DNA of 64,000 nucleotides from positions 1,674,001 through 1,738,000 of the forward strand of contig NZ_CP011454.1 in assembly GCF_000695095.2 (NCBI RefSeq), read 5' to 3'. Source of the DNA: Gemmatimonas phototrophica. Its GTDB lineage: Bacteria > Gemmatimonadota > Gemmatimonadetes > Gemmatimonadales > Gemmatimonadaceae. This document shows positions 9,227 to 53,429 of this stretch, in pieces. The notes beneath the pieces were generated by a model that searched no databases, was not told where the DNA came from, and worked only from the letters and a program-made list of their open reading frames with translations. How positions within the stretch are numbered: the first letter of the stretch is position 1; every line of letters begins with the position of its first letter. The position numbers and the translations under genes were made by a program.

Positions 9227-10321
9227 CTAGACGTTGAACCGGAACAACAGCACGTCGCCGTCCTGCACCACGTACTCTTTGCCTTCCGATCGCACCGCCC
9301 CCTTTTCCTTGGCGCCCTTCCAACCGCCCAGGGAGACGAAATCAGCAAACGACGCCGTCTCGGCCCGAATGAACCCCTTCTCGAAGTCCGTGTGAATGAC
9401 CGCCGCGGCCTTGGGGGCCGTGTCGCCTTTGTGAATGGTCCACGCGCGTACTTCCTGCTCGCCGGCCGTGAAGTACGTGTCGAGCCCCAGGAGCGAGTAG
9501 CCGGCCCGGATGAGTCGGTCGAGCCCCGCCGACTCAATGCCCAGCGAGGCGAGAAACTCGGCCCGCTCGTCGGCCGGCAGTTCCGACAGCTCCGACTCGA
9601 TCTTGGCCGAGAAGGGCACGACTTCGGCGTGTTCCCCCGCCACGGCCTCGCGCAGCGCCTTGAGGTACGTCCCCTCTTCGCCCGACAGCTCCTCGTCGGT
9701 CACGTTGGCGGCGTAGAGCACCGGCTTGGCGGTGAGCAATTGCATACCGCCCAGCTTTTCCAGGAAATCGGCCGAGAGGCCGGCGCGCCAGAGCGGCTTC
9801 CCTTCGGAGAGAGCGGCGTTGGCGGCTTCGAGCGCCGGCAATTCGGCCAACGCCTCCTTGTCGGCCGCCTTGGCGGCGCGCTTCACCTTGTCGAGCCGCT
9901 TTTCCACCGTGGCCAGATCGGAAAGCGCGAGCTCCAGCTCAATGATTTCCTTGTCGCGTGCCGGGTCGGGCTGCCCCATCACGTGCGTCACGTCGTCGTC
10001 GGCAAAGCAGCGGATGACGTGCACAATGGCGTCGGTCTCGCGGATGTTCTGCAGGAACTTGTTCCCCAGCCCTTCACCCTGCGACGCGCCCTTGACCAGC
10101 CCGGCAATGTCCACGAACTGCACCACCGCCGGCACCGTGCGCTTGGGGAGCACGATTTCCGCCAGCTTGTCGAGCCGGGGATCGGGAACCTCCACCATGC
10201 CCACATTGGGCTCAACGGTGCAGAAGGGATAATTCGCCGCTTCCGCCTTTGCCGCCGTGAGCGCGTTGAAGAGCGTGGATTTGCCAACGTTGGGGAGACC
10301 GACGATACCGAGGCGGAGCAT
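9227..10321 (-). CDS. ychF: Redox-regulated ATPase/GTPase YchF (Obg family)
   Basis: This 364-residue protein has the YchF layout. The N-terminal G domain starts MLRLGIVGLPNVGKSTLFNA (Walker A GLPNVGKST), with a PNVGMVEVPDPRL segment, switch II VDIAGLVKGASQGEGLG, and the altered G4 motif NVTDEE in place of NKxD, which explains ATP preference in the family. A helical insert follows G3 and the C-terminal TGS-type domain contains VRAWTIHKGDTAPKAA, IHTDFEKGFIRAE and DGDVLLFRFNV. YchF binds the ribosome and modulates stress responses. The start is placed at 10321 because this gives the universal MLRLGIVG N-terminus and normal length (about 363). Confidence 0.97.
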   Translation of the reverse strand: MLRLGIVGLPNVGKSTLFNALTAAKAEAANYPFCTVEPNVGMVEVPDPRLDKLAEIVLPKRTVPAVVQFVDIAGLVKGASQGEGLGNKFLQNIRETDAIVHVIRCFADDDVTHVMGQPDPARDKEIIELELALSDLATVEKRLDKVKRAAKAADKEALAELPALEAANAALSEGKPLWRAGLSADFLEKLGGMQLLTAKPVLYAANVTDEELSGEEGTYLKALREAVAGEHAEVVPFSAKIESELSELPADERAEFLASLGIESAGLDRLIRAGYSLLGLDTYFTAGEQEVRAWTIHKGDTAPKAAAVIHTDFEKGFIRAETASFADFVSLGGWKGAKEKGAVRSEGKEYVVQDGDVLLFRFNV

Positions 10322-10445
10322 GGGGCTGGGTTGGGGTTTGGATACAGCTTTGAAAGGTAATAGGGGAGGGGAGGGGGGCGGAAAAATGATCGGGTGGCCG
10401 CGAAAATGATGAGATTCCATTGCCTGCCATAGCCTATCCTCTGGG

Positions 10446-10820
10446 ATGCAGGACTTTCGGAAACTCGTGGTATGGCAGCGGGCGCAGGCATTGGCCGCTC
10501 GGGTACATCGGCTCACGACCTCACCCAAAGGGGGCGCACATGGCGCGTGGCGCAATCAGCTCCAACGTTCGGTTCAATCGATTGCCGCAAACGTTGCCGA
10601 AGGCGCAGTAAGGTCAACGCCGAGGCAATTTGGTCATTTTCTCACGATCGCTTTGGGGTCAACGTCGGAGACCGAGAGCCACTTGGACTTCGCGTGGCGG
10701 ATCGGAGCCCTCTCCTCCGACGACGTTATGCCTCTGCTTGACGAGGCGGCTCAAATCCGTCGCATGCTTACGGCACTACGCAAACGGGTTCTGGAGACCC
10801 AAAGGAAAACTGAACACTGA
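10446..10820 (+). CDS. Four-helix-bundle protein (S23/IVS-encoded family)
   Basis: This 124-residue protein begins MQDFRKLVVWQRAQALAARV, the signature of the small four-helix-bundle family first seen in intervening sequences of 23S rRNA (TIGR02436-like). Further family marks are QLQRSVQSIAANVAEGA, FGHFLTIALGSTSETESHL and a final helix with ALRKRVLE. The family forms oligomeric helical barrels; diversity-generating-retroelement Avd proteins share the fold. Its cellular role is unknown outside those systems. No reverse transcriptase or rRNA lies nearby here. The stop codon at 10818-10820 is inside the start of a palindromic heptad repeat array, so gene and array are physically joined. The upstream 124 bp are shared with the divergent ychF. 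Confidence 0.9.
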   Translation: MQDFRKLVVWQRAQALAARVHRLTTSPKGGAHGAWRNQLQRSVQSIAANVAEGAVRSTPRQFGHFLTIALGSTSETESHLDFAWRIGALSSDDVMPLLDEAAQIRRMLTALRKRVLETQRKTEH

Positions 10821-10947
10821 CAACTTGAACTGACCACTGAGAACTCCTGCTGAAAACTGAAAACTCCCCGCGGGTGGCGAGGAGTCTTCACTTCTGAGTT
10901 CGAGTTTTCAGTGGTCAGTTGGAGTTTTGAGTCTCCAGTTCAACTCC
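10808..10947. repeat. Palindromic heptad array A (ACTGANN words)
   Basis: Two inverted arms surround a GC-rich centre near 10867-10883. The left arm reads ACTGAAC, ACTGACC, ACTGAGA, CTGAAAACTGAAAACTC. The right arm reads the reverse complement type: GAGTTTTCAGTGGTCAGTT and GAGTTTTGAGTCTCCAGTT. Words share ACTGA and differ in the two bases that follow. The array joins the end of the four-helix-bundle gene to the stop codon of the convergent M28 peptidase gene. It could fold into a long imperfect hairpin. Confidence 0.85.
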
Positions 10948-12687
10948 CTACTGCTTGCACTGCCCCCGCGGATTCAGCTTCGGCTGATCGACCAGCGGCC
11001 TCGTTGCGCGATTGCCCAGCTCCGTCGCGATATCCGCCACCAGCCGCGACACGCGCTGCATATGCGGGTAATCGATATACTGCGGCTCGTCGGTGAGCTG
11101 GTGATACGCCGAGTGTCCACCGGTGGTGAAGAACGTGACCGGCACGCCCCACTTGGCGTACTCGTAGTGATCGCTGCGGCAGTAGATATTCATGGGGTGC
11201 CCGTTGGCATCCATGGCGTAGTCGAACGAGAAGTTGTGCTTCTTGCCCGTATTCACTTTCTCCACCAGGTCGCCCAGCTCGGTGGACAAACGGCGCGAAC
11301 CCACCAGCTGCAGATAATCGGGGCCGCCGCGCAGCTCCTTACCGTCGGCGCTCATGCCGGTCTGGTCGGTCGCGCTGCCGCGGCCCACCATGTCCATGTT
11401 GAGCTGCGCCACAATGCTGTCGCGCGGCACCGTGGGGTACTCGGTGAAGTGCGCTGAACCCCACAGCCCTTTCTCTTCGCCGGCGTGCCACACGAAGAGC
11501 GTGCTGCGCTTGGGCTTCACCTTCTGCGTGGCCAGATACTCGGCGATCTCCAGCACCGCCATGGAGCCGGAGCCGTCGTCATCGGCGCCGTTGAAAATGG
11601 AGTCGCTACGCGCCGGACGATTCTTGCGCAGCTCGGCCAACTCGGCATTGATCTGCACGAACTGTTCGGCGTTGCCCATCTTGTCGTCGTTCTCAGCGCC
11701 GCCGGGACGCACGATCTTGTTGAAGACGTAGACGGAATCGTGATCGATGGCGCGGCGTGCCGTGCCCACATGATCGCTGTGGGCGCCGATGGCCACGTAC
11801 TGCGTGGCGAGCTTGGGATCGCTTCCGGGAATGAGCCCGATCACGTTGCGCGCAGGGAATGGCGGGGACTGCATATCTACGAGCGCCTTCACGTTCAACT
11901 TGGCGCCGACCGCTCCCGGCGCCAGCATGGACATGCCGACGTTGAAGATTTTCGTCGTCACACTGTCCGTGACGAAGAGCCGGGAATCCGAAGGCATGTT
12001 CGGGTCAACCACGGAAAGCCCGCCTTGCAGCACGTAGTTCAGCACGCCGCGCGCTTGGGCAGGGAGCAGGAAGAGCACCGCGGCGGCGCCTTCCGGCGCC
12101 TCGATGCTCCCCACAACGGCGCGCTGCAGCGCGGGATTGCTCGTGATGCTGTACGCGACCACGCGCCCCTGTGCCTGTTCCGGGGTCACCGGGGGCATCC
12201 CCTCCGCGGGAAGCGGGCCGGCAAAGAAAACTTCCGCATCGTTTGTCGTGATGTTCTGGGCGCCGCTGAATGCCCATTCCTGGCCAAGCGTCGCCGTGGC
12301 GCCCCCCGCCACAAACGACGACATGCGATCGACCCTACGCGTCTTGAGCGGCAACGTCTGGAAGTACGTGCCGCTATCGCCCATGGGCTTGATGCCGAGC
12401 CGTTTGAGCTCCCCAGCAATGTACGTGGTGGCCTTGTAATGCCCTTCGGTGCCCACATCGCGGCCACCGAGCGAGTCGTCGGCAAAGATGTACAGCCGCG
12501 TCATCAGATCCTGCGACGTGATCGCCCCGGTGGTGGGGCGCGGCGTGTGCTTGAGCGGCAGCGGGGAACTGTTCACGCCCGCGTCTACGGGCGTCTTGCG
12601 GGGAGCATCCTGCGCCTGTCCAACCAGCGGCGCGGAGATCGTGGCAACAGCGGCGGCCAGCAGCCACCGCGGCGAAATCATGGTCAT
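10948..12687 (-). CDS. Secreted M28 family zinc aminopeptidase
   Basis: This 579-residue protein carries a signal peptide (MTMISPRWLLAAAVATIS...GQAQ). A protease-associated-type insert occupies roughly residues 120-280. The M28 catalytic core then shows all expected ligands for two zinc ions: His in AIGAHSDHVG (about 301), Asp in GADDDGSGSM (about 367), the Glu pair in WHAGEEKGLWG (about 402), Asp in LNMDMVGR (about 430) and His in TGGHSAYHQ (about 523). It should trim N-terminal residues from peptides in the periplasm or outside the cell. Its ATG overlaps the stop codon of the upstream lipoprotein gene (ATGA), so the two are translationally coupled. Its stop codon abuts repeat array A. Confidence 0.93.
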   Translation of the reverse strand: MTMISPRWLLAAAVATISAPLVGQAQDAPRKTPVDAGVNSSPLPLKHTPRPTTGAITSQDLMTRLYIFADDSLGGRDVGTEGHYKATTYIAGELKRLGIKPMGDSGTYFQTLPLKTRRVDRMSSFVAGGATATLGQEWAFSGAQNITTNDAEVFFAGPLPAEGMPPVTPEQAQGRVVAYSITSNPALQRAVVGSIEAPEGAAAVLFLLPAQARGVLNYVLQGGLSVVDPNMPSDSRLFVTDSVTTKIFNVGMSMLAPGAVGAKLNVKALVDMQSPPFPARNVIGLIPGSDPKLATQYVAIGAHSDHVGTARRAIDHDSVYVFNKIVRPGGAENDDKMGNAEQFVQINAELAELRKNRPARSDSIFNGADDDGSGSMAVLEIAEYLATQKVKPKRSTLFVWHAGEEKGLWGSAHFTEYPTVPRDSIVAQLNMDMVGRGSATDQTGMSADGKELRGGPDYLQLVGSRRLSTELGDLVEKVNTGKKHNFSFDYAMDANGHPMNIYCRSDHYEYAKWGVPVTFFTTGGHSAYHQLTDEPQYIDYPHMQRVSRLVADIATELGNRATRPLVDQPKLNPRGQCKQ

Positions 12688-20693: not shown

Positions 20694-20848
20694 CTGCATC
20701 CTGCTTCCTGCTTCCTGCTCACATCCCAAGTTCTCAGTTCTCAGTTTGAGTTTTCAGTGCTCAGTAGGAGTTTTCAGTTTTCAATTGTTGACTGAGAACT
20801 GGAAACTTGAACTGACCACTGAAAACTCCCACTGACCACTAGAAACTT
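20694..20848. repeat. Palindromic heptad array B (with a CTGCTTC prefix)
   Basis: The region starts with four 7-bp words, CTGCATC CTGCTTC CTGCTTC CTGCTCA (20694-20721). It is followed by a right-type arm (TTCTCAGTTCTCAGTTTGAG, TTTTCAGTGCTCAGT, ending near 20785) and then a left-type arm (ACTGAGAACTGGAAACTTGA, ACTGACCACTGAAAACTC, to 20848). The arm order is opposite to that of array A. It lies between prs and rplY, two genes on the same strand. Words again share ACTGA and differ in the next two bases. Confidence 0.8.
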
Positions 20849-20882
20849 CCTGCATTGTCCACGAGGCCAGTGCTCTCGCCCG

Positions 20883-37875: not shown

Positions 37876-37988
37876 GAACTGACGACTCAAAACTCCAACT
37901 CAAAACTCACCACTCGTCGCGGGGCTGAGGAGTCATGAGTCTTGAGTTGGAGTTATGAGTGGTGAGTTCAAGTTCTGAGTGGTAAGTA
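37876..37988. repeat. Palindromic heptad array C (ACTCANN words)
   Basis: The left arm reads ACTCAAA ACTCCA ACTCAAA ACTCACC ACTCGTC (37884-37918). The right arm reads the complement type: CATGAGT CTTGAGT TGGAGT TATGAGT GGTGAGT (37933-37966) and then TTCTGAGT. The loop is GCGGGGCTGAG-like. Here the fixed part is ACTCA rather than ACTGA. It lies between two divergent genes, the aminotransferase and the TIM-barrel protein, where promoters would be expected. Confidence 0.85.
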
Positions 37989-41865: not shown

Positions 41866-42039
41866 AAACTGAGAACTGAAAACTCGAACTGACAACTGAT
41901 AACTCAAACTGACAACTGAAAACTCAAACTGACAACTGAAAACTCAAACTGACAACTGAAAACTCGTCAGCCTCAAGAAGTTGTCAGTAATCAGTCGAAG
42001 TTCTCAGTTCTCAGTTCGAGTTTTCAGTTGTCAGTCGTC
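41866..42039. repeat. Palindromic heptad array D with four 20-bp tandem units
   Basis: Four tandem 20-bp units lie at 41881-41960. The last three are identical (AACTCAAACTGACAACTGAA) and the first differs at two positions. Each unit is ACTGANN, ACTGANN, ACTC-A (7+7+6). The right arm at 41980-42037 reads GTTGTCAGTAATCAGTCGAA, then TTCTCAGTTCTCAGTTCGAG and TTTTCAGTTGTCAGTC. It fills the gap between the start of the YdeI gene and the stop of the S9 peptidase gene. Confidence 0.9.
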
Positions 42040-45638: not shown

Positions 45639-45779
45639 GAACTGAAAACTGAAAACTCGAACTGACGACTGAATACTTCTACTGAAAACTGAAAACTCCC
45701 CTCGCCCGAGTGGAAAGAAGTTGTCAGTCGTCAGTAAGAGTCTTCAGTTCTCAGTTTGAGTATTCAGTTGTCAGTTTCT
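45639..45779. repeat. Palindromic heptad array E
   Basis: The left arm reads ACTGAAA ACTGAAA ACTCGA ACTGACG ACTGAAT ACTTCT ACTGAAA ACTGAAA ACTC (45641-45698). The right arm, from 45721, reads TTGTCAGTCGTCAGTAAGAG, TCTTCAGTTCTCAGTTTGAG, TATTCAGTTGTCAGTTTC. The loop (45699-45720) is CCCTCGCCCGAGTGGAAAGA-like. It fills the space between the stop codons of the convergent TIM-barrel and SDR genes, 5 bp from each. Confidence 0.9.
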
Positions 45780-53177: not shown

Positions 53178-53250
53178 GCCCAATACTATGGCCCAAACGT
53201 CCGGTTCGTTGGGGGATCAGGGTAACTCTGCCGCAGGGCCTTAACTCTAG

Positions 53251-53429
53251 ACTGAAGACTCCAACTGAAAACTGAAGACTCCAACTGAAAACTGAAGACT
53301 CCAACTGAAAACTGAAGACTCCAACTGAAAACTGAAAACTCCCCGGGCATCACGCGATACCCGAGGGAGTTCTCAGTTCTCAGTTCAAGTCGTCAGTCGT
53401 CAGTTGGAGTTTTCAGTGCTCAGTATCCA
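53251..53429. repeat. Palindromic heptad array F with four identical 20-bp tandem units
   Basis: Units at 53251-53270, 53271-53290, 53291-53310 and 53311-53330 are identical: ACTGAAGACTCCAACTGAAA. They are followed by ACTGAAAACTCC. After a loop with a second small hairpin (CCCCGGGCATC...GATACCCGAGGG) the right arm (53366-53429) reads GAGTTCTCAGTTCTCAGTTC, AAGTCGTCAGTCGTCAGTTG, GAGTTTTCAGTGCTCAGT. It lies between the co-directional tldD start and the dienelactone hydrolase stop. The 4-copy perfect tandem suggests recent expansion. Confidence 0.92.

What the first reader, a model, noticed from the sequence alone, without database searches (positions are those of the whole stretch)
10446..10947. 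Four-helix-bundle gene whose 3' end merges with a heptad palindrome
The stop codon of the S23/IVS-type four-helix-bundle gene (10818-10820) is inside the first words of array A. Proteins of this fold are found in rRNA intervening sequences and as the Avd partner of diversity-generating retroelements, both repeat-associated settings. Here the gene may be the trans-acting partner of the dispersed arrays, or both may be carried as one unit. The link is positional only.
Basis: partly seen in the sequence, partly recalled or inferred. Interest (0 to 1): 0.72.

Follow-up and report, generated by a model that had tools for sequence, protein, structure and literature searches.

The report
Four-helix gene with own palindrome family
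A small gene that biologists know from insertions inside ribosomal RNA turns out to sit, in bacteria from four phyla, beside or between inverted arrays of short (mostly 7-letter) words, and in the two genomes tested each such gene has its own family of gene-less copies of those arrays scattered through the genome, which points to an unrecognised kind of mobile-repeat system.

Summary
In detail: the gene at 10446-10820 is PF05635 (23S rRNA-IVP/S23, Avd-like four-helix bundle), and its stop codon lies in the second word of a 131-bp palindrome made of ACT words in exact 7-7-6 spacing. The positional link is general. In 30 genomes of the genus, 74 of 99 PF05635 genes lie between inverted repeats (0 of 193 control genes) and 11 more have a one-sided hairpin, this gene among them. 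Similar inverted heptad arrays flank most sampled PF05635 genes of Cyanobacteria and the ones looked at in Azospirillum and Riemerella. Filled and empty sites show array-gene-array inserted as one unit between neighbouring genes. In this genome all four PF05635 genes, each with a different word, have their own families of 14-40 loci, nearly all gene-less; a gene in a second genome does too. The gene is under purifying selection, keeps its locus, flips in place, and the genome has no reverse transcriptase. Best reading: a REPIN/RAYT-like partnership run by a non-transposase ring protein, related to rRNA intervening sequences. Association and cognate families are shown; action of the protein on the arrays is inferred. 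No paper making this link was found in the open-access library searched.

The parts
10446..10820 (+). PF05635/TIGR02436 four-helix-bundle (23S rRNA-IVP/S23) gene, 124 aa; stop TGA 10818-10820
10809..10865 (+). Left arm of the heptad palindrome: ACT words spaced 7-7-6; first two words overlap the gene's last codons and stop
10866..10882 (.). 17-nt centre between the arms
   Evidence: 15-18 nt is the commonest spacing of the family
10883..10939 (-). Right arm (inverted), same 7-7-6 words
20729..20849 (.). Gene-less palindrome of the same word family, arms in the reverse order (AGT then ACT)
37878..37987 (.). Gene-less palindrome, same family, words ACTCANN
41868..42035 (.). Gene-less palindrome, left arm grown to 15 words (5 units)
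45641..45775 (.). Gene-less palindrome, same family
53244..53424 (.). Gene-less palindrome, left arm 15 words
9227..10321 (-). Neighbour: ychF-like GTPase gene (identified by its sequence; start taken as 10321)
   Evidence: 84-96% identical in relatives at the same locus
10948..12687 (-). Neighbour: M28-type peptidase gene, convergent, stop 8 nt from the array

Best explanation
The gene is the resident protein partner of a family of dispersed palindromic repeats. Shown: (1) PF05635 genes lie between, or beside, inverted arrays of short tandem words; (2) array-gene-array inserts as one unit between neighbouring genes in plasmid operons; (3) each gene tested has its own dispersed family of gene-less arm-arm copies with the same words and, where the gene itself lies between arms (L004, L005, L190), the same arm order; (4) the gene keeps its locus, evolves under purifying selection and inverts in place. 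Inferred: the protein, a four-helix bundle whose relatives form five-membered rings, recognises the tandem words as DNA or as the transcribed hairpin, and this recognition lets arm-arm units spread or persist, with host enzymes doing the cutting and joining. Functionally it would resemble REPIN/RAYT, with an unrelated protein. 23S rRNA intervening sequences would be the special case in which such a unit landed in rRNA. In this window the unit is the form with the palindrome on the 3' side only.
For: Flanking inverted repeats: 74/99 PF05635 genes in the genus against 0/193 controls, control maximum 13.5, gene median 29.5; 16/27 outside the genus in the same class. Strong tandem repeats downstream 38/103 and upstream 32/101, against 8/189 downstream of other genes and 4/259 random windows. 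Heptad inverted arrays on plasmids of Cyanobacteria, Azospirillum and Riemerella. Filled/empty sites in cas10-cmr3, a conjugation operon, an integrase operon, nrdB-nrdA and others; one site keeps arms without the gene (L289). Cognate families: window words 36 loci, L003 14, L005 40, L004 33, second genome 14. dN/dS 0.05-0.27 in 18 pairs. In-place inversion in 38 of 179 syntenic pairs. At the orthologous ychF/M28 locus all seven gene-bearing genomes have the arrays; five have neither gene nor array. Variable spacer bases do not co-vary between arms (0.46 within against 0.44 between palindromes), so what is kept is the spaced words rather than full pairing.
Against: No test of binding or movement. 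14 of 99 genes show neither flanking repeat nor hairpin, and word length is not always 7 (8, 9, 15-17 also occur). No nuclease motif is known in the family. The window copy lacks an upstream arm. A clear duplication of target bases was seen at only one insertion site. Long inverted repeats can invert by ordinary homologous recombination without the protein. No control BLAST with arbitrary intergenic DNA was run for the family counts. The 179 syntenic pairs are not independent.
Confidence: 0.6

Rival explanations
1. Passenger model: the unit is a selfish hairpin element (an IVS outside rRNA). Arms arise and stay alike by slippage and recombination, host functions move it, and the PF05635 protein has another job such as regulating its own transcript.
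For: Coxiella IVS has the same layout and heptamers but its S23 protein is probably not made (PMC4990558); gene-less copies are the majority; inversion needs only recombination.
Against: Strong purifying selection on the protein and one gene per array family, each with its own words, are not expected of a passenger.
Confidence: 0.22
2. Terminator/3'-end model: the palindromes are bidirectional terminators or mRNA 3'-end protectors selected at the ends of convergent genes; PF05635 genes simply have them too.
For: 17 of 19 palindromes examined lie within about 35 nt of a stop codon by a heuristic gene call; strong hairpin.
Against: No T-run or terminator match; does not explain arms on both sides of 74/99 genes, different words per gene, unit insertion, or lack of pairing co-variation at spacers.
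Confidence: 0.12
3. Avd/DGR model: the gene is a partner of a reverse transcriptase that diversifies or copies the arrays.
For: Same fold as Avd.
Against: No RVT_1 match in this genome and in 27 of 30 genus genomes although 28 of 30 have PF05635.
Confidence: 0.03
4. Chance adjacency of a common gene and a common repeat.
For: Only 1 of 4 own-genome members has ACTGANN words.
Against: The other three have inverted arrays of other words; 74/99 against 0/193.
Confidence: 0.01

Closest known systems
23S rRNA intervening sequences (IVS) with S23/IVP ORF (Coxiella, Leptospira)
   Same: Same protein family; ORF between complementary ends of a hairpin; in Coxiella tandem heptamers GACAGAT, variable in number, stand just upstream of the ORF (PMC4990558)
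   Different: Here outside rRNA, between protein genes; arms are long tandem arrays; large families of gene-less copies with gene-specific words
REPIN / RAYT (REP-associated tyrosine transposase)
   Same: Resident gene that keeps its locus, adjacent palindromes, one dispersed palindrome family per gene (PMC3116915)
   Different: Protein is a four-helix bundle without a known nuclease, not a Y1 HUH transposase; palindromes are built of tandem words
Heptamer repeats of cyanobacteria, Beggiatoaceae (TAACTGA) and Xanthomonas/Nostoc (GGGAATC)
   Same: Intergenic tandem 7-mers, many per genome; function and spread unexplained in those papers (PMC4679880; PMC4692102)
   Different: In the passages read, not linked to PF05635, and described mainly as direct rather than inverted arrays
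Avd of diversity-generating retroelements
   Same: Same fold (4DWL, 8UB7)
   Different: No reverse transcriptase in this genome
23S_rRNA_IVP genes reported in cas loci
   Same: PMC3936711 lists 18 such genes, one between cmr2 and cmr3
   Different: There read as a CRISPR-linked function; the filled and empty cas10-cmr3 sites here suggest insertion of a mobile unit

Membership tests
PF05635 / TIGR02436 | profile match over the curated cut-off and four-helix fold | tested here: met
   93 bits against 33.8; 94.2 against 24; model matches 2GSC and 2RLD
23S rRNA IVS | insertion inside a 23S rRNA gene | tested here: not met
   flanked by ychF and an M28 peptidase gene; only a tRNA found by Rfam in the window
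23S rRNA IVS | ORF between complementary ends | tested here: inconclusive
   not met for the window gene (IR score 10, palindrome on the 3' side only) but met for 74/99 family members and the other three genes of the genome
REPIN/RAYT | dispersed palindromes cognate to a resident gene | tested here: met
REPIN/RAYT | gene encodes a Y1 HUH transposase | tested here: not met
   the protein is PF05635
Diversity-generating retroelement | reverse transcriptase gene | tested here: not met
   no RVT_1 match in the genome
Intrinsic terminator | GC stem followed by a T-run | tested here: not met
   none found at 10300-11100
Heptamer tandem repeats (STRR type) | tandem 7-mer words | tested here: met
   7-7-6 words here; 7-mers around most plasmid relatives
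DDE transposon/MITE | target-site duplication | tested here: inconclusive
   a GRTTCTAR duplication at one site, no clear one at the others

The most novel reading that the evidence does not exclude
PF05635 proteins are a new class of repeat-spreading proteins: ring-shaped, nuclease-free proteins, each reading its own tandem word. The unexplained heptamer repeats of cyanobacteria, Beggiatoaceae and Xanthomonas, and the rRNA intervening sequences, are their footprints.
Probability: 0.35. Interest if true: 0.95.

Novelty: categorically new. Interest (0 to 1): 0.85.

Why it matters
It would join three old puzzles: what S23/IVP proteins do, how rRNA intervening sequences move, and where the abundant 7-mer repeats of cyanobacteria and other bacteria come from. 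It supplies a second, unrelated solution to the REPIN/RAYT problem of a resident gene with its own palindrome population, offers a simple reading of PF05635 genes in CRISPR loci as insertions, and makes each point testable because every gene predicts its own repeat word.

Tried and rejected
Search for ACTGANN arrays alone: found only in this species plus weak variants in the genus, and next to only 1 of 4 family members; this would have wrongly refuted the link. DGR/Avd partner: no reverse transcriptase. Known RNA family: none at the array. Intrinsic terminator: none. Transposition between loci in Gemmatimonas inferred from apparently non-syntenic pairs: wrong, the flanks are conserved and the segment is inverted. 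Hairpin co-variation in spacers: absent. MAFFT placed the PCC 7002/7003 junction badly, so it was read directly. Literature searches for a PF05635-repeat link found none, but only open-access papers are held.

Full report
The gene and the array. The window lies at 1,674,001-1,738,000 of a single-contig 4.72 Mb genome. Its closest named relatives by the neighbouring M28 peptidase are Gemmatimonas metagenome genomes. The ORF 10446-10820 is PF05635/TIGR02436. Its AlphaFold model (pLDDT 95) matches 2GSC (Xanthomonas XCC0516; five chains in the entry, described as an assembly of five four-helix bundles, PMC4990558 and PMC3936711), 2RLD, and the DGR protein Avd. The array begins at 10809, so the ORF's last three sense codons and its stop lie in array words. 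Each arm carries nine ACT word positions spaced 7-7-6-7-7-6-7-7 over 57 bp, that is three 20-bp units ACTGANN ACTGANN ACTYNN. With up to three mismatches the arm occurs 79 times in the genome against 3 for the reversed pattern, at 36 loci of which 32 have arms on both strands, most often 15-18 nt apart. Six of the palindromes lie in this window within 43 kb.

The link is general once words are allowed to differ. The genome has four PF05635 genes. The other three have no ACTGANN array, but each is bounded by inverted arrays of its own words: L004 by 57-nt arms 96% complementary (GTTATGG words), L005 by 124-nt arms 83% complementary (ATCTCAG/TCTCACC words), L003 by arrays of the AACCGCAGTGGCAG type. 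I collected PF05635 genes of 30 genomes of the genus. Of 99 with enough flank, 74 lie between inverted repeats scoring 14 or more; none of 193 control genes from the same loci does (maximum 13.5). Eleven more, the window gene among them, have a hairpin on one side only, and 14 have neither. One-sided hairpins alone are not rare near other genes (19 downstream and 18 upstream of 193), so the two-sided inverted repeat is the sharp signal. Strong tandem repetition is present downstream of 38/103 and upstream of 32/101 genes, against 8/189 and 4/259 in controls; lags 7 and 14 are the commonest but 8, 9, 15 and 16 also occur. The downstream arm starts within 10 nt of the stop codon in 25 of 74, overlapping it in 9, so the merging of stop codon and array seen in the window is a recurrent feature.

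The same locus in relatives. Between ychF and the M28 gene, seven genomes including the window's have the gene, and all seven have inverted arrays whose words differ by species (AGCTGAAAGCTC in L059, AACTCAGAACTCGAAACTG in L070, and so on). L057 has a long heptad palindrome without the gene; L056 shows a palindrome but its contig ends before the gene could be seen. L064, L067, L071, L074 and L090 have neither. In L058 the gene is reversed and lies between the arms.

Other phyla. PF05635 genes on plasmids of Cyanobacteria, of Azospirillum (Pseudomonadota) and of Riemerella (Bacteroidota) are flanked by inverted heptads, each with its own word: TAGGGAG, GGGAACA, AAAGGGA, GGTGACA, AGCTAAA, GGGTGTA, AGAAGTC, GGTTTAA and others. 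With 200-nt flanks 10 of 13 exceed the 95th percentile of random flank pairs, though one random pair, lying on another repeat, scored higher than all. The upstream arm is G-rich on the gene strand in 11/11 of these plasmid units with arms and 55/65 of the Gemmatimonas ones.

The unit moves as a whole. Plasmid operons with and without the gene show array-gene-array as the inserted piece between a stop codon and the next gene: cas10-cmr3 in Picosynechococcus PCC 7003 against 7002, a conjugation operon in Nostoc C052 against C057, two different gaps of one operon in Nostoc ATCC 53789 (L281 and L309), an integrase operon, and nrdB-nrdA. At one site GRTTCTAR flanks both ends, a possible 8-bp duplication. 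In L289 the arms remain at the same site without the gene, and L294 carries a different heptad palindrome (AATTCAA) at that site. The 18 PF05635 genes reported in cas loci (PMC3936711) may be insertions of this kind.

Cognate families. BLAST of each gene's arm against its own genome gives: L003 25 hits at 14 loci; L005 57 hits at 40 loci; L004 53 hits at 33 loci; and, in a second genome, L190 23 hits at 14 loci. With only four PF05635 genes in the window genome, nearly all these loci are gene-less, and the gaps between their paired arms (at most about 140 nt) are too short to hold the gene. For L004, L005 and L190 the arm order of gene-less copies is the order around the gene (17/17, 13/13, 8/9), as expected if they are the unit minus its gene. 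L003 is flanked by one palindrome of its family on each side, the RAYT-like arrangement. Eight L004-family and L005-family hits lie within 400 bp of each other, so families also share sites.

Evolution of the gene. Pairs of orthologues have dN/dS 0.05-0.27, so the protein is under selection. Loci are conserved between species, but in 38 of 179 syntenic pairs the segment between the arms is inverted relative to conserved flanks; these pairs are not independent. Ordinary recombination between the arms suffices for inversion. Four residues are invariant in 58 aligned proteins: Q38, N49, E52, E75.

Mechanism. The order of confidence is: association (very high), unit insertion (high), cognate families (high in the genomes tested), protein acts on its words (about 0.6), protein is needed for spreading (about 0.45). 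A ring of five subunits reading evenly spaced words is the simplest way to link ring, word spacing and word specificity; spacer bases are free and the words are kept, which fits recognition of words rather than of a perfect helix. What cuts and joins DNA is unknown. An Avd-like partnership with a reverse transcriptase is disfavoured because none is found here. A terminator role may be a by-product: 17 of 19 palindromes examined end within about 35 nt of a stop codon by a heuristic gene call, but no T-run follows, and insertion next to stop codons may simply be what selection tolerates.

Known context. Coxiella's IVS has tandem heptamers GACAGAT just before the S23 ORF, in variable number (PMC4990558): the same architecture inside rRNA. 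TAACTGA heptads of Beggiatoaceae, Cyanobacteria and Bacteroidetes (PMC4679880) and GGGAATC heptads of Xanthomonas and Nostoc (PMC4692102) are unexplained in those papers. X. campestris is also the source of the solved PF05635 protein, which gives a sharp prediction that I could not test here. 'Categorically new' is my rating because no described system that I found pairs this protein family with dispersed cognate palindromes; a stricter reader could call it a new variant of the IVS.

Limits. Start codons were guessed, controls rest on heuristic gene calls, many genus genomes are drafts, the literature library holds open-access papers only, and nothing was measured at the bench.

Noticed in passing
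window 10809-53424: Six of about 36 ACT-word palindromes of the genome lie within 43 kb; another four lie at 949-987 kb. The clustering is unexplained.
   Followed up: no
genome 4527340-4527616: Two near-identical copies of a palindrome in tandem, 148 bp apart, like tandem REPIN clusters.
   Followed up: no
window 41868-41964 and 53244-53340: Left arms grown from 9 to 15 words by near-identical 20-bp units while right arms stay at 9 words: recent unit expansion on one side only.
   Followed up: no
genome about 803-941 kb and 4155 kb: Arms of the L004 and L005 families lie within 400 bp of each other at eight places: composite or hotspot sites.
   Followed up: no
L294 1375-1780: A different heptad palindrome (AATTCAA words) sits at the very gap where relatives carry a PF05635 unit: insertion hotspot.
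   Followed up: partly
L151, L172 (same genome), L150: PF05635 gene embedded in long arrays of about 120-bp repeats, with proteins identical over the compared region in the two copies of one genome.
   Followed up: no
L154: PF05635 copy with an internal TGA, apparently decaying.
   Followed up: no
L274, L278, L282: PF05635 genes between cas6 and cas4 or cas10 and cmr3.
   Followed up: partly
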